Source: a virus. From it: DNA of 34,933 nucleotides. Where the stretch lies: IMG/VR virus record IMGVR_UViG_3300025949_000063, positions 1-34,933 of that record. The stretch is one strand, 5' to 3'. This document shows, piece after piece, positions 20,625 through 31,963 of this stretch. The stretch's first letter is position 1. Each line of letters starts with the position of its first letter. The translations under genes were made by a program, and so were the position numbers. The notes under the pieces are model-generated. The model had not been told where the DNA came from. It worked only from the letters and a program-made list of their open reading frames with translations, and ran no database searches.

Positions 20625-20640
20625 GCATATTCTGTAGATT
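20612..20640 (+). promoter_or_regulatory. transposase promoter overlapping the left inverted repeat
   Basis: TTGACG (20612-20617) and TAGATT (20635-20640) are 17 nt apart, a good sigma70-type pair. The -35 box lies within the inverted repeat, so transposase binding there could repress its own gene. Called from sequence only. Confidence 0.5.
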
Positions 20641-20708
20641 TGATGTCAATTCGAGGGAACCAAAAGCACGCTTCGCGAACGGTTCTAGATCAAAAGTGGA
20701 ATGACACG

Positions 20709-21623
20709 ATGTCGCACTTCAACGCTCCCCACTTCCAGAACGTCGAAGCCGCACGCGAATACCTTGAACAGCTTCGCTGGGGTGGCGAGCGCGTGTGTCC
20801 CCACTGCGGAACCGTCAACAACTCTTTCCCGACCAACAAGCCGGGCGTGTACCGATGCCGGTCCAAGGAATGCCGCAAGGACTTTACCGTCACCACCAAG
20901 AGCGTGATGGAAAGCAGCCATATCAAGCTCAACGTCTGGCTACAGGCTTTCTACTTGATGGCCTCCAGCAAGAAGGGCGTCAGCGCCCATCAGCTGCACC
21001 GCGCTTTGGGCGTGACGTATAAGACCGCTTGGTTCCTTGCGCACCGCATCCGGGAAGCAATGCGCTCGGGTGGCTTGCTTCCGCCTCTGGGCGGCGCTGG
21101 CAAGACCGTGGAAGTGGACGAAACTTTCATCGGCAACATCAAGAACGTCCGCCGATCGCGCGGCACGGGCCATAAGAACGTCGTTCTGACGCTGGTCGAG
21201 CGCGGCGGTGCTGCCCGTTCGTTCCATATCGACAGCACGTCGCTTTCCGACGTCATGCCCATCGTAAATGCGAACGTGAAGCGAGAGACCGACTTGATGA
21301 CCGACGAAGCACGCCACTATGGCATAGTGGGCCATGGCTTCGCGGATCATGGTCGGGTCAATCATAGCAAAGATGAATATGTCCGCCGCGAAGGCGAGCG
21401 GATGATCTCGACCAACACGGTCGAGGGCTACTATTCGGTCTTCAAGCGCGGCATGAAGGGTGTGTATCAGCACTGCTCAGAGAAGCACCTGCACCGCTAC
21501 CTTGCCGAATTTGATTTTCGCTATTCCAACCGCGTTGGCCTTGGCGTCAACGATGGGGAACGTGCAGATCTTGCGGTTCGTGGTGCGTCGGGCAAGCGTC
21601 TGACGTATCGTCAAGCTAACTAA
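20709..21623 (+). CDS. IS1595-family (ISXO2-like) DDE transposase
   Basis: This 304-aa enzyme would cut and join the element's ends. The N-terminus has the zinc ribbon CPHCG (about residues 33-37) with a second pair, CRSKEC, typical of the family. A helical DNA-binding part follows (KGVSAHQLHRALGVTYKTAW). The ISXO2-like core begins with the first catalytic Asp in VEVDETFIG. A later Asp lies in the LMTDEARHY segment. The terminal acidic motif is NTVEGYYSVFKRGMKGVYQH, ending with FDFRYSNR. It appears full length. An ATG 69 nt upstream is possible, but this start matches the usual N-terminus. A terminator lies about 110 nt downstream. Confidence 0.9.
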   Translation: MSHFNAPHFQNVEAAREYLEQLRWGGERVCPHCGTVNNSFPTNKPGVYRCRSKECRKDFTVTTKSVMESSHIKLNVWLQAFYLMASSKKGVSAHQLHRALGVTYKTAWFLAHRIREAMRSGGLLPPLGGAGKTVEVDETFIGNIKNVRRSRGTGHKNVVLTLVERGGAARSFHIDSTSLSDVMPIVNANVKRETDLMTDEARHYGIVGHGFADHGRVNHSKDEYVRREGERMISTNTVEGYYSVFKRGMKGVYQHCSEKHLHRYLAEFDFRYSNRVGLGVNDGERADLAVRGASGKRLTYRQAN

Positions 21624-26244: not shown

Positions 26245-26411
26245 TGCCGAGCCTCGCAAGATCGAGCTTTAGCGAGCCAGCTCTTCACGTTGTTCTCGGA
26301 GTTATCGAGTAGCCGCGCAATTTCCTTCCGCGTCATGCCGCTGTTGAACATCTTAAGGACGGCTTGGCAGTGCTTTGCCAGGGCTTCTCTGCGAAGATAG
26401 GCACGCCTCAT
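26241..26411 (-). CDS. 56-aa helix-turn-helix protein
   Basis: The frame runs from ATG 26411-26409 to TGA 26243-26241. The sequence MFNSGMTRKEIARLLDNSEN followed by NVKSWLAKAR is a good helix-turn-helix of the resolvase/sigma type (residues 21-50). It overlaps both the DnaA-like gene stop (ATGA) and the next ATG. It may be a small transcription factor or recombination accessory protein of the early operon. Confidence 0.6.
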   Translation of the reverse strand: MRRAYLRREALAKHCQAVLKMFNSGMTRKEIARLLDNSENNVKSWLAKARSCEARQ

Positions 26412-26974
26412 AGCAGCGCCTCACATGCTCGGATATCGGCGGCGGCATAGGAATCAGTCTCGATCAGTTGTTCGCACCGCCTAACCGAATACATGATCGT
26501 TGTGTGGTCGCGCCGGCCAAAGCAGCGGCCCAGAAATGGGTAGGACTGACCCGTCTGTTTCCAGCAAAAATAGATCGCAACACGTCGAGCGCTCGCGACC
26601 CGGTTGGAACCACGCCCTTCCTTGCCGGGCTTCAGCAGATCATAGATATCGACCGCAAAATGCTTTGCGACGATCTGTTGAATGCGGACAACCTCGGGAT
26701 AGTCAGGATTGACCTGATCGAGAGGACGGGGTGCCCATTCGCGCGGCGGAAGTTTCTTCCTAAGCGGGCTATTATCGAGAATCTGTTCGGGAGCCTGGAA
26801 TATGATCTCGACCGGCTTGGGCGTTGATACCTTCAATGATTGGAATCGCGCTGCTTGGGCAGCGAAACGCGCTAGGCGTGCCTTATGGGCTTCATGTTGT
26901 GCGGAGAGCTCACTCCCCTTCTCGTTTGAAAAGCTCGGCGACGATCGCCGCGATGATTGCCCCTGGTGGTTCAT
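26408..26974 (-). CDS. DnaA domain IV-like origin-binding protein
   Basis: The N-terminal 85 residues are polar and probably unstructured. Residues 90-175 match the DNA-binding domain of DnaA: YPEVVRIQQIVAKHFAVDIY, RVASARRVAIYFCWKQTG and the signature FGRRDHTTIMYSVRRC (152-167). The AAA+ ATPase of DnaA is absent. It could bind DnaA boxes in the phage or host origin and act as a phage initiator or as a decoy. The ATG overlaps the preceding gene by 65 nt and has a GGGGGA sequence only 2 nt upstream, so the start is a little uncertain. Confidence 0.82.
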   Translation of the reverse strand: MNHQGQSSRRSSPSFSNEKGSELSAQHEAHKARLARFAAQAARFQSLKVSTPKPVEIIFQAPEQILDNSPLRKKLPPREWAPRPLDQVNPDYPEVVRIQQIVAKHFAVDIYDLLKPGKEGRGSNRVASARRVAIYFCWKQTGQSYPFLGRCFGRRDHTTIMYSVRRCEQLIETDSYAAADIRACEALL

Positions 26975-27987: not shown

Positions 27988-28184
27988 GGCACCGTCTTCG
28001 ACACATAGTCGTCAGCGGTGCTCTGCCCTTTCGTAAATTTCTTGATCTGCTCGATTGTTTCCCAGTCGGGGCGAACCTGCCGCCGACGAATCCTGCTCAC
28101 GGTCGGACGTGTGCGGGAAATGCCTTTTGCTACCTCCTCATCGGAGAGGTTATTAGCAGCCATGTAGTCAGCTAGATGCACCAT
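27984..28184 (-). CDS. Cro-like HTH repressor
   Basis: This 66-aa protein has the lambda-repressor-type helix-turn-helix: MVHLADYMAANNLSDEEVAK then RTRPTVSRIRRRQVRPDW (about residues 8-45) and a short tail. It is transcribed from the left early promoter, which has a 19-bp operator between its boxes, so the product or its partner probably regulates it. The ATG lies 7 nt after the -10 box, with no room for a ribosome site. A start nine codons upstream is formally open but lies within the promoter. The Cro role is inferred from size and orientation. Confidence 0.7.
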   Translation of the reverse strand: MVHLADYMAANNLSDEEVAKGISRTRPTVSRIRRRQVRPDWETIEQIKKFTKGQSTADDYVSKTVP

Positions 28185-28191
28185 GCCCCAA

Positions 28192-28221
28192 TTTGTACAC
28201 CCGATGCACATTTGCCGTCAA
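28192..28221 (-). promoter_or_regulatory. left early promoter with embedded operator
   Basis: On the minus strand TTGACG (28221-28216), an 18-nt spacer and TACAAA (28197-28192). The spacer and -10 hold operator O1. The transcript start should fall at about the ATG of the Cro-like gene (28184), predicting a leaderless mRNA. The arrangement is nearly the same as at 29074-29103. Confidence 0.6.
28193..28211. promoter_or_regulatory. operator O1, 19-bp dyad
   Basis: TTGTACA-CCCGA-TGCACAT: half-sites fit WTGTRCA with a 5-nt centre. It overlaps the -10 region and spacer of the left promoter. It matches O4 at 17 of 18 core positions. Confidence 0.65.
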
Positions 28222-28260
28222 GCGGTTTGTGCGGCCGGTGTTCTGTACAGGAAAACGGCG

Positions 28261-28279
28261 TCGTGCATCATACGTACAT
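28261..28279. promoter_or_regulatory. operator O2, 19-bp dyad over the CI-like start codon
   Basis: TCGTGCA-TCATA-CGTACAT has the same half-site and 5-nt centre plan, with one weaker position per arm. It overlaps the ATG (28278) of the CI-like gene, so binding there would give negative autoregulation. A further half-site with CTGTACAG lies at 28243-28250. Confidence 0.5.
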
Positions 28280-28595
28280 GGTCAAGAAAAAGCGCCCATC
28301 CGGCCAGCGTTCAAAGCCCAAGTACGGGCCGCATTTTCTGCGTAAATGGCGCCTCAAAAGAGAAATGACGCTGGAAGCCGTTGCGGAGGCCGTAGGGCTG
28401 TCACACGCTCAGCTCCAGCGGATAGAGACGCGCCAGCAAAAATACAGCCAGACGCTCTTAGAACGGCTCTCAGGGGTCTACGGCGTGCCAGTCACTTGGC
28501 TGATCGAGCGCGATCCCGATCTGGAAGAAGTTTGGAAGGAAATCGACCGATTCCGCGATTTCACTCTAGGACAGGGCAACCCTCTTCCTGCTTAA
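28278..28595 (+). CDS. CI-like HTH repressor (short, no cleavage domain)
   Basis: This 105-aa protein has a basic N-terminus (MVKKKRPSGQRSKPKYG) and an XRE helix-turn-helix: EMTLEAVAEAVGLSHAQLQR followed by IETRQQKYSQTLLERLSGVY (about residues 35-75). An acidic tail follows. There is no S24/LexA-type self-cleavage domain, so SOS-type induction by RecA would need another route. It diverges from the Cro-like gene across a 93-nt operator region and is the likely lysogeny repressor. The frame extends upstream to 28176, but this ATG fits the repressor start. Confidence 0.72.
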   Translation: MVKKKRPSGQRSKPKYGPHFLRKWRLKREMTLEAVAEAVGLSHAQLQRIETRQQKYSQTLLERLSGVYGVPVTWLIERDPDLEEVWKEIDRFRDFTLGQGNPLPA

Positions 28596-29323: not shown

Positions 29324-29353
29324 TCGCAAAAATCCATCGCACAGGAAAATCAC

Positions 29354-30010
29354 ATGACGATTTGGCTCAAGGACGATCGCGGAAATAAATGTTCAATTGA
29401 ATATTTCGGCTCGAAAGAAGATGCGCAGAAGGCTCTAGACAGCCTTGATAACTGCGACAATTGCACCAACTGCTCGGACTGCTCGCGCTGCTCGCGCTGC
29501 TCGCGCTGCTCGCGCTGCTCGCGCTGCTCGCGCTGCTCGCGCTGCTCGCTCTGCTCGCTCTGCTCGGGCTGCTCGGGCTGCTCGGACTGCTCGGACTGCT
29601 CGGACTGCTCGCGCTGCTCGCGCTGCTCGCACATCGCATGGCTCTACAACCGCGAGAGTCTTCAAGCCGACGCGAGCTCGCCGCAAGGCGAAGCTGGGCC
29701 GCCGCCGGTTCCCGTCATCGAAAATATCCATCAGGCGGTCTATACCGCCGCGTCTCAGCCGCGCGCGCTCGAAATGTGCGATTGGCACACATGCGCAGAA
29801 ACCCATTGCCGCGCCGGCTGGGTGGTGACGCTAGCGGGTGACGCCGGCAAGAAGCTGGAGGCCTTCTTCGACACGACCGTCGCCGCGATGAAAATCTACG
29901 ACGCAAGCTCGTCGCTGCCCAGAGTCTCGCCGGTCAAGTTCTTCGATACGAATGCTGACGCGCTCGCCGATATGAAGCGGATGGCCGAGATGGAGAAGGC
30001 TGATGCTTAA
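29354..30010 (+). CDS. protein with a 20-cysteine tripeptide array and a C-terminal HCRAGW domain
   Basis: This 218-aa protein has three parts. Residues 1-33 form a short folded start (MTIWLKDDRGNKCSIEYFGS). Residues 34-91 contain twenty cysteines exactly three residues apart, mostly as CSR, CSL, CSG or CSD units. After a proline-rich linker the C-terminal part (about 140-210) has CDWHTCAETHCRAGWVVTLA and SPVKFFDTNADALADMKRMA. I recall similar C-terminal domains behind pentapeptide-type repeats in alphaproteobacterial proteins, so the cysteine array may replace a stacked-repeat solenoid. Metal binding or a disulfide- or zinc-linked helix are possible. The array is open in other frames too because of the DNA repeat, but flanking domains and gene overlap support this frame. 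Confidence 0.7.
   Translation: MTIWLKDDRGNKCSIEYFGSKEDAQKALDSLDNCDNCTNCSDCSRCSRCSRCSRCSRCSRCSRCSLCSLCSGCSGCSDCSDCSDCSRCSRCSHIAWLYNRESLQADASSPQGEAGPPPVPVIENIHQAVYTAASQPRALEMCDWHTCAETHCRAGWVVTLAGDAGKKLEAFFDTTVAAMKIYDASSSLPRVSPVKFFDTNADALADMKRMAEMEKADA
29453..29626 (+). repeat. 9-bp tandem repeat encoding the Cys-Ser-x array
   Basis: The core unit is TGCTCGCGC, with variants TGCTCGCTC, TGCTCGGGC and TGCTCGGAC, in blocks of seven, two, two, three and two copies. It keeps the 3-residue protein period. Grouping of identical variants suggests expansion by slippage or unequal recombination, so copy number may vary between phages. Confidence 0.85.
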
Positions 30011-30742: not shown

Positions 30743-31213
30743 ATGGACGTTCTCGAAGAATTTTTCCCGAGCAAGCACCTGAAAGCTGACGACCTCAAAG
30801 ACAAGGAAGTTCACGTCACCATCGACCGTATCGAGCGCGAAAAGCTTGGCGACGACATGAAGCCTGTTCTGTACTTCCAAGGCAAGCAGAAGGGCCTTGT
30901 CCTCAACAAGGGCAACGCGCAATCAATCGCCGACGCGTTCGGCCGGGACTCTCGCAATTGGGTCGGGCAGGAAGTAGTTCTTTTGTCGATCTGGACGGAA
31001 TACCAGGGCAAGCCGGTGAAGGGATTACGCGTCCATATTCCGCCGCGCGTTCAGCACTCGTCATCTGATCCGCGCAGCCATGGACCGGACGATTCGATCT
31101 CTAGTGGACCCGCTCCCCGTCGCGCGATCGGCGGTATCTCCGACAACATGGATCGTGTGCAGGGCGGCGGTTCGCTCAACGATGACATCCCCTTCGCCGC
31201 TGAATTTCGCTGA
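30743..31213 (+). CDS. ssDNA-binding-like protein with SSB-type acidic tip
   Basis: This 156-aa protein has a beta-rich N-terminal domain (residues 1-105) with FFPSKHLKADDLKDKEVHVT, KPVLYFQGKQKGLVLNKGNA and YQGKPVKGLRVH, likely an OB-type fold as in several phage accessory proteins. A low-complexity glycine/serine/proline linker follows. The tail ends SLNDDIPFAAEFR. The DDIPF element (147-151) is the recruitment tip of bacterial SSB. It probably coats single-stranded DNA or mimics SSB contacts during replication or recombination. AAGGAAA precedes the ATG. Confidence 0.6.
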   Translation: MDVLEEFFPSKHLKADDLKDKEVHVTIDRIEREKLGDDMKPVLYFQGKQKGLVLNKGNAQSIADAFGRDSRNWVGQEVVLLSIWTEYQGKPVKGLRVHIPPRVQHSSSDPRSHGPDDSISSGPAPRRAIGGISDNMDRVQGGGSLNDDIPFAAEFR

Positions 31214-31223
31214 GGCTTAATCC

Positions 31224-31667
31224 ATGTCCGTCGCTGAACGAGCTGTAACAAACGCCATTCCGCTTGAGGTCAAGAAGGATGGTCTAGCCCAACGTCAATC
31301 GGGCGATTGGGTATTGCGTCTGGTCGTTCAAGCGGCGGACATGGACCCCCGCCTGACAAATGCAGCAATGGGGACGCGCTATCAAGCCGCCCTCGTTGAG
31401 ATCGGAGACGACGAGCAGCCGAAAGGCAAGATGGACTGGCGCGAGCTTCAACCTGCCGCGCAAGCTGGTATCCGCTGCGCTGAAGCACGCTTCAGGGACT
31501 TTCTCGCTGTCGAGCATGGGTTCAATACCAAAGATGCCGATGAGGCCGCCATCGTTGTGCGCCAACTCTGTGGCGTCGCCTCTCGATCAGAACTTTCAGC
31601 AAATCATAAAGCTCGCGTTCGATGGCACAATATTGACGCTCAATATCTGCAGTGGGGCGGCCGATGA
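31224..31667 (+). CDS. 147-aa hypothetical early protein
   Basis: The protein begins MSVAERAVTNAIPLEVKKDG, then DWVLRLVVQAADMDPRLTNA and AAMGTRYQAALVEIGDDEQP. A phrase AAQAGIRCAEARFRDFL lies in the middle and a basic end follows. The first two-thirds look like a compact alpha/beta domain seen in other phages next to SSB-like and HNH genes. It may be part of the recombination or replication set. Family not named. It overlaps the next gene by 4 nt. Confidence 0.6.
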   Translation: MSVAERAVTNAIPLEVKKDGLAQRQSGDWVLRLVVQAADMDPRLTNAAMGTRYQAALVEIGDDEQPKGKMDWRELQPAAQAGIRCAEARFRDFLAVEHGFNTKDADEAAIVVRQLCGVASRSELSANHKARVRWHNIDAQYLQWGGR

Positions 31668-31963
31668 CCCTGCGCCAGCGTGAACCGAGAGAGCGGGATG
31701 AGAAGCACCTCGATTACATCCGCAGTTTGCCATGCTGCATCTGCGGGGACAATACTTCAACAGAAGTTGCGCATATCCGAGCCGGTTCGATCAACCACGG
31801 TAAACGTCCTACGGGCATGCAAGAAAAATCCTCAGATCGATGGACTTTGCCATTATGCGGAAAGCACCACAGAGAACAGCACGCCGCCGGAAACGAAATC
31901 GCCTGGTGGGCGAGCTACGGCAAAGACCCGTTCATGCTCGCAATGACGCTGAGATCGAAGTGA
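31664..31963 (+). CDS. DUF968/HNH-like protein
   Basis: The protein starts MTLRQREPRERDEKHLDYIR and has CCICG (about residues 24-28), EVAHIRAG (34-41), DRWTLPLCGKHHREQH (58-73) and WWASYGKDPF. This is the pattern of DUF968-type phage nucleases, which have a zinc site and an HNH-like His pair. It may process recombination intermediates, in line with SSB-like and RusA genes. Its ATG overlaps the previous stop. Confidence 0.72.
   Translation: MTLRQREPRERDEKHLDYIRSLPCCICGDNTSTEVAHIRAGSINHGKRPTGMQEKSSDRWTLPLCGKHHREQHAAGNEIAWWASYGKDPFMLAMTLRSK

What the first reader, a model, noticed from the sequence alone, without database searches (positions are those of the whole stretch)
29354..30010. Twenty cysteines at exact three-residue spacing in one phage protein
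Residues 34-91 are (Cys-x-x) units, mostly Cys-Ser-Arg/Leu/Gly/Asp, followed by a folded HCRAGW-type domain. A strict 3-residue period would put all cysteines on one face of a triangular or polyproline-like helix. It could bind a row of metal ions, form a disulfide ladder, or build a solenoid. I recall the same C-terminal domain after pentapeptide-like repeats, so this may be a swapped repeat module. The 9-bp DNA repeat shows block-wise expansion, which suggests rapid copy-number change.
Basis: partly seen in the sequence, partly recalled or inferred. Interest (0 to 1): 0.75.

Follow-up and report, generated by a model that had tools for sequence, protein, structure and literature searches.

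The report
Phage rod protein with cysteine core
A phage gene encodes a protein with a cysteine at every third residue, twenty in a row; relatives in many phages suggest it is a very thin coiled rod with a cysteine core that stands in for better-known rod-shaped repeats, with an unknown role early in infection.

Summary
ORF 29354-30010 (218 aa) has 20 cysteines at exact three-residue spacing (residues 34-91), then a 'THCRAGW' domain. This is a widespread, selected protein module: I read 88 distinct arrays (2,341 triplets) joined to this domain. In 2,314 triplets read across breaks, only 4 lack the cysteine, and synonymous TGC/TGT variation persists. PHROGs lists the array (phrog_15341) and the domain (phrog_31265), both of unknown function; Pfam has neither.

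The same C-terminal domain follows pentapeptide or LRR-like repeats in relatives. A second domain (phrog_20532) follows (Cxx)n, pentapeptide, YdcK and hexapeptide solenoids. This makes a solenoid the best reading.

The likeliest fold resembles the Tenebrio antifreeze protein, whose core residues also fall every third position. It is the top PDB profile hit (E 0.005) and top structural row (Z 4.7) for a relative, but both are weak. The window's own array was not resolved by AlphaFold2.

Neighbours (YqaJ exonuclease, ERF, DnaB, SSB-like) place it in early recombination/replication operons. Whether the thiols are free, disulfide-bonded or metal-bound is untested. New variant of a known kind (beta-solenoid).

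The parts
29354..30010 (+). Whole gene: N-cap + (Cys-x-x)20 array + linker + HCRAGW-type C-terminal domain, 218 aa
   Evidence: phrog_31265 E 1.8e-33 and phrog_15341 E 6.4e-10
29343..29346 (+). AGGA ribosome-binding-like motif upstream of the ATG at 29354
   Evidence: read directly from sequence
29354..29452 (+). N-cap type A (residues 1-33, W-x-x-D-x-x-G-N-K-C-S-x-E-Y-F-G-S...), predicted strands plus helix, pLDDT about 90
   Evidence: caps A and B precede (Cxx)n arrays in 86 of 87 ORFs, the exception (L003) being cut by a stop inside its array
29453..29632 (+). (Cys-x-x)20 array, residues 34-93; 9-bp DNA repeat CTGCTCGCG
29633..29707 (+). Linker, residues 94-118 (IAWLYNRESLQADASSPQGEAGPPP)
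   Evidence: mostly low pLDDT
29708..30007 (+). C-terminal domain, residues 119-218, with invariant M-x-x-W-H-x-C-x3-H-C-R-A-G; mostly helical, pLDDT about 95
   Evidence: alignment A1, phrog_31265, model; no solved-structure relative found
28176..28595 (+). Cro/CI-type HTH regulator upstream, marks the start of the early rightward region
   Evidence: Pfam HTH_3 E 3.1e-11
30743..31213 (+). Neighbour: phrog_21613 protein (unknown function; SSB-like by my reading), also found beside the gene in three other loci
31652..31963 (+). Neighbour: HNH / DUF968-type nuclease
   Evidence: PF06147 E 2.7e-14

Best explanation
The (Cys-x-x)n stretch is a very tight right-handed beta-solenoid. Every third residue (Cys) points into the core, position 2 forms the beta-bridges, and position 3 (Asp, Gly, Asn, Arg, Ser, Tyr, His) sits at a corner and displays the variable surface. 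It works like the coil of the Tenebrio antifreeze protein, with all four core positions of each 12-residue turn being Cys instead of Cys-Ser-Cys-Ala. The array starts on a dedicated N-cap, is lengthened or shortened in 9-bp steps, and carries a small helical C-terminal domain that other phages attach to pentapeptide or LRR-like solenoids instead. The whole is an early, probably cytoplasmic phage protein made with the recombination/replication genes, in which the rod presents a fast-evolving binding surface and the C-terminal domain engages a host or phage partner. Shown: sequence periodicity, conservation, module swapping, gene neighbourhood. Inferred: the fold. Guessed: the partner, the redox or metal state, and the role.
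For: (1) Domain swapping: the HCRAGW domain (phrog_31265) follows (Cxx)n in 88 of 126 ORFs read, pentapeptides in 24, and LRR-like repeats in two. A different C-terminal domain (phrog_20532) follows (Cxx)n in L188 and L169 (and L199 by sequence), and pentapeptide (PF00805), YdcK (PF18836) or hexapeptide (PF00132) repeats in cultured phages. (2) Register: the PDB sequence nearest to a profile of diverse (Cxx)n relatives is Tenebrio antifreeze protein 1EZG (E 0.0047). Its printed sequence reads in triplets CTN-SQH-CVK-ANT-CTG-STD, i.e. core residues at every third position (also single queries, not significant). (3) A template-free AF2 model of relative L248 puts beta-bridges on residues 41, 44, 47 ... 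86, always Cys+1; its best structural rows are 1EZG (Z 4.7, 74 residues, rmsd 4.6) and 1L1I (Z 3.8). The first triplets of the window model show the same every-third bridging. (4) Composition: Asp/Gly/Asn are 58-65% of position 3 but 3-11% of position 2 (p<1e-90); in other contexts beta-formers prefer position 2. (5) GenBank annotators independently flagged 'insect antifreeze' similarity in Vibrio phage 1.238 and Campylobacter phage CPt10 relatives. (6) Neighbours: YqaJ-type exonuclease near 19 loci, ERF-like 9, DnaB-like 6 (families named by my reading of the sequences). N-cap types A and B occur only with these arrays.
Against: The window's own array is unresolved by AF2 (pLDDT <50, residues 48-94). 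The relative's array is only about 60-67. AF2 is known to over-predict beta-solenoids for perfect repeats (PMC11795689). Z 4.7 and E 0.005 are weak, and the sequence match carries a large composition-bias correction. Array lengths show no preference modulo 3 or 4 triplets and no lag-3 or lag-4 surface pattern, so coil size is unsupported. Cys is kept more strictly than mere core packing would need in this family. No function or expression data exist.
Confidence: 0.55

Rival explanations
1. Metal-thiolate chain: the array is metallothionein-like or binds zinc or Fe-S clusters along its length, and the metal drives folding. This may coexist with a solenoid.
For: Cys is kept in 2,310 of 2,314 triplets while position 2 is free in other contexts; C-x2-C spacing is the usual zinc and Fe-S ligand spacing (established knowledge); phage-infected cytoplasm is reducing. 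Weak PDB sequence hits to zinc proteins, non-significant.
Against: The same C-terminal domains work with cysteine-free pentapeptide, hexapeptide and YdcK repeats, so metal is not needed for the shared role. Divergent members replace Cys in register by Ser, Phe or Leu.
Confidence: 0.2
2. Disulfide ladder: neighbouring core cysteines form disulfides as in Tenebrio antifreeze protein, possibly after lysis, giving an extremely stable rod.
For: Closest solved sequence and fold is the disulfide-bonded Tenebrio protein.
Against: The proteins start directly with a conserved N-cap and show no export signal by inspection; bacterial cytoplasm is reducing; genes lie in early operons, not with lysis or tail genes.
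Confidence: 0.1
3. Ice-binding (antifreeze) protein.
For: Database annotations of relatives as 'insect antifreeze protein'.
Against: No T-x-T ice-binding ladder, no Pfam match at E<=10, mesophilic hosts, early-operon location.
Confidence: 0.02
4. Polyproline-like or triangular extended helix with cysteines on one face.
For: Exact period of three is compatible with a three-fold helix.
Against: No Pro or Gly pattern; every-third beta-bridges in both models; swaps are with beta-solenoids.
Confidence: 0.07
5. Passive DNA repeat expansion: the array is a by-product of slippage with no structural role.
For: 9-bp repeat with length differences between relatives that have identical flanks.
Against: Register and Cys are conserved despite synonymous codon change and free change at position 2; arrays of quite different DNA sequence exist in AT-rich phages.
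Confidence: 0.03
6. Substrate of a radical-SAM enzyme that makes thioether links from the cysteines.
For: A radical-SAM gene lies about 0.8 kb from the end of the array gene in Campylobacter phage CPt10, and CP220/CPt10 carry 11-12 such genes (PMC2853527).
Against: No radical-SAM gene in the window record; the enzyme could be host-encoded.
Confidence: 0.03

Closest known systems
PHROG phrog_15341 (array) and phrog_31265 (C-terminal domain)
   Same: The window protein matches both (E 6.4e-10 and 1.8e-33); these are its families.
   Different: Both are listed as unknown function; the catalogue entries seen here describe neither the three-residue period nor the swapping.
Tenebrio molitor antifreeze protein (1EZG, 1L1I; insect antifreeze family)
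   Same: Core residues at every third position; tight right-handed beta-solenoid; Cys-rich; weak profile and structural match.
   Different: Tenebrio: 12-residue TCTxSxxCxxAx repeat with Cys at two of four core positions and a Thr ice-binding face, secreted and oxidised (established knowledge). Here Cys at all core positions, no T-x-T face, no secretion signal seen.
Pentapeptide-repeat proteins (PF00805) of phages
   Same: Same C-terminal domains and same early-operon setting; solenoid repeats that vary in number.
   Different: Five-residue period with Leu/Ala core; no sequence relation to the Cys array; different N-cap.
YdcK / hexapeptide beta-solenoid phage proteins (phrog_7964, PF18836, PF00132)
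   Same: Share the phrog_20532 C-terminal domain with (Cxx)n proteins L188 and L169 and sit beside RecT, Rad52-type, Gam or exonuclease genes.
   Different: Six-residue-type repeats without cysteines.
Metallothioneins
   Same: Very high Cys content in a small cytoplasmic protein.
   Different: Strict C-x-x spacing over up to 59 unbroken triplets, capped and often fused to a folded domain; metal binding not shown.

Membership tests
phrog_15341 ((Cxx)n array family, unknown function) | Profile match over N-cap and array | tested here: met
   E 6.4e-10, residues 10-99
phrog_31265 (C-terminal domain family) | Profile match and invariant W-H-x-C-x3-H-C-R-A-G core | tested here: met
   E 1.8e-33; alignment A1
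Insect antifreeze protein (Tenebrio type) | 12-residue TCTxSxxCxxAx repeat / Pfam match | tested here: not met
   No Pfam family at E<=10 for P0001 and five relatives
Insect antifreeze protein (Tenebrio type) | Core residues at every third position in a right-handed beta-solenoid | tested here: inconclusive
   Register matches and relative's model is nearest to 1EZG, Z 4.7; window array itself unresolved
Insect antifreeze protein (Tenebrio type) | Threonine ladder (T-x-T) for ice binding | tested here: not met
   Position 2 is Ser in 80% of triplets and Thr in 2.4%; position 3 has no Thr
Insect antifreeze protein (Tenebrio type) | Disulfide-bonded core | not testable with these tools
   Needs chemistry
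Pentapeptide repeat family (PF00805) | A(D/N)LXX five-residue repeats | tested here: not met
   No Pfam match for the window protein
Beta-solenoid proteins in general | Coiled beta structure with repeating core | tested here: inconclusive
   Swaps with known solenoids, every-third bridges; low confidence
Metallothionein / metal-thiolate protein | Stoichiometric metal binding | not testable with these tools
   Needs ICP-MS or spectroscopy
His-Xaa-Ser repeat protein HxsA4 (NF038313) | HxS repeats above curated cut-off | tested here: not met
   18.8 bits against cut-off 55; composition match only

The most novel reading that the evidence does not exclude
The array is a beta-solenoid whose core is a continuous column of cysteine thiols that binds a row of metal ions or clusters (or is redox-switched), i.e. 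a length-tunable thiol or metal rod made by phages during early infection.
Probability: 0.15. Interest if true: 0.9.

Novelty: new variant of a known kind. Interest (0 to 1): 0.62.

Why it matters
If the fold is right, this would be a beta-solenoid with a three-residue period and a single core residue type: a genetically tunable rod with one thiol per three residues. It shows that phages treat quite different solenoids as interchangeable carriers for the same small C-terminal domains, next to recombination genes. That makes a large group of 'unknown function' phage proteins testable as one functional class, and offers a natural scaffold for placing thiols or metals at regular spacing.

Tried and rejected
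Pfam: no family for the window protein at E<=0.1 or <=10. NCBIfam: only a sub-threshold HxsA4 composition match. PDB Foldseek and VIA-align with the window model: nothing significant; BFVD: only the phage FL-1 orthologue fragment. The C-terminal domain therefore has no solved relative found here; its fold was searched only as part of the whole model. Fixed coil size from lag correlations or array length modulo 2-6: no signal. DNA-level constraint at position 3 (NRY codons): near-absolute pyrimidine wobble in Gly/Arg codons of the HCRAGW family, but purine-ending Gly/Arg codons occur in other phages, so amino-acid choice plus array homogenisation is preferred. DNA mimicry: mean net charge -0.10 per triplet, spread 0.20, so no consistent acidic surface. 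Radical-SAM partner in the window: none. Literature searches on Cxx repeats, phage cysteine repeats and antifreeze-like phage proteins found no description; main texts of three Campylobacter phage papers do not mention cysteine or antifreeze.

Full report
Observation. The ORF at 29354-30010 (+) is real and as described: 218 aa, 20 cysteines at exact three-residue spacing (34-91), encoded by a 9-bp repeat of 17.9 copies at 94% match. It has an AGGA motif upstream. It lies in a rightward run of early genes, after a Cro/CI-type regulator and before a phrog_21613 protein (SSB-like by my reading) and an HNH nuclease. The window is a whole IMG/VR record of a phage with P22-type coat and portal proteins.

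Relatives. The C-terminal domain (phrog_31265, no Pfam family) was used to fetch viral, prophage and plasmid loci. Of 126 ORFs read, 88 carry (Cxx)n arrays (longest unbroken run 59 triplets), 24 carry pentapeptide repeats, and the rest are LRR-like, unusual or cut by contig ends. Hosts whose isolate genomes carry arrays include Kaistia, Bosea, Phyllobacterium, Rhizorhapis and Dyadobacter, so arrays are not only a metagenome artefact. Across 2,314 triplets read through breaks, 4 lack Cys and one array has a register-breaking indel. TGC and TGT are both used. This is purifying selection on a protein repeat.

Other contexts. A DNA scan for (TGY N6)n found arrays in proteins without the HCRAGW domain. 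One group ends in a different C-terminal domain (phrog_20532), others in short tails or a phrog_14105 domain; nine of nine such proteins tested match phrog_15341. Single phage contigs carry several paralogues. Cultured relatives exist in Campylobacter phages and Vibrio phage 1.238, the latter having N-cap and array only. N-cap types A and B were found in 87 ORFs, 86 with a (Cxx)n array; the one exception, L003, is interrupted by a TAG codon inside its array.

Swapping. The HCRAGW domain pairs with (Cxx)n, pentapeptide and LRR-like repeats. The phrog_20532 domain pairs with (Cxx)n and, in cultured phages, with repeats that Pfam recognises as pentapeptide, YdcK beta-solenoid or hexapeptide. Two different C-terminal domains thus treat (Cxx)n as equivalent to known solenoids. 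This is my main argument for the fold.

Fold. AF2 on the window protein gives confident N-cap and C-terminal domain, and an unresolved array. AF2 on a relative with a varied array gives moderate confidence (block means mostly 58-67), with beta-bridges at every third residue, always the residue after Cys. The best structural rows are Tenebrio antifreeze protein, Z 4.7 and 3.8, and the profile of that relative's family finds the same protein as the top PDB sequence at E 0.0047, in register. Position 3 is rich in Asp, Gly and Asn, position 2 is not. These agree with an inward Cys, bridging position 2 and turning position 3. Each line is weak alone, and AF2 is biased towards beta-solenoids (PMC11795689). 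Coil size is not established; the 12-residue turn is taken from the Tenebrio analogy only.

Function. Neighbouring genes are mostly recombination and replication genes: YqaJ-type exonuclease (19 loci), ERF-like (9), DnaB-like (6), named by my reading of representative sequences; the same holds for YdcK-type cousins beside RecT, Rad52-type, Gam or exonuclease genes. I infer an early cytoplasmic protein in which a length-variable rod displays a binding surface and the C-terminal domain engages a partner. The partner is unknown. The cysteines may be free, metal-bound or oxidised. The C-terminal domain's invariant H-x-C-x3-H-C could itself be a metal site; this is untested.

Dynamics. L095/L102 and L008/L009 have 100% identical DNA downstream of the array but 42/37 and 28/25 triplets. 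This supports fast length change, with the caveat of short-read assembly and possibly overlapping samples. Broken copies exist: the stop in L003, a frameshift after the array in L086, and one within the C-terminal domain in phage FL-1; sequencing error cannot be excluded for any of them.

Verdict. The sequence feature is real and selected, and the swap idea is right. It is best read as a new variant of beta-solenoid, catalogued but unexplained. The metal or redox role is open.

Noticed in passing
L138, L203, L248-L289 (IMGVR_UViG_3300037172_000055, 3300029922_000042 and others): Single phage contigs carry several paralogous N-cap + (Cxx)n genes that share array blocks, suggesting shuffling between paralogues.
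   Followed up: partly
L294-L301: A second small C-terminal domain (phrog_20532) is fused to pentapeptide, YdcK and hexapeptide solenoids and to (Cxx)n arrays, several of them beside RecT/Rad52/Gam/exonuclease genes.
   Followed up: partly
L043, L047, L055, L061: HCRAGW domain preceded by LRR-like (TALPEGL), GSNLS and AAWAAR repeats.
   Followed up: no
L003:3824-3826: The closest relative has an in-frame TAG inside its Cys array.
   Followed up: no
L086:3746-4300 and L001:3482-4313: C-terminal domain out of frame with the N-cap/array (L086) or internally frameshifted (phage FL-1).
   Followed up: partly
window 20640-21623: IS1595-family (ISXO2-like) transposase gene within the phage record.
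   Followed up: no
window 26408-26974: Phage protein with a DnaA C-terminal DNA-binding domain (PF08299).
   Followed up: no
L290:5135-6151 (Campylobacter phage CPt10): Radical-SAM gene close to a (Cxx)n gene; possible but untested cysteine modification.
   Followed up: partly
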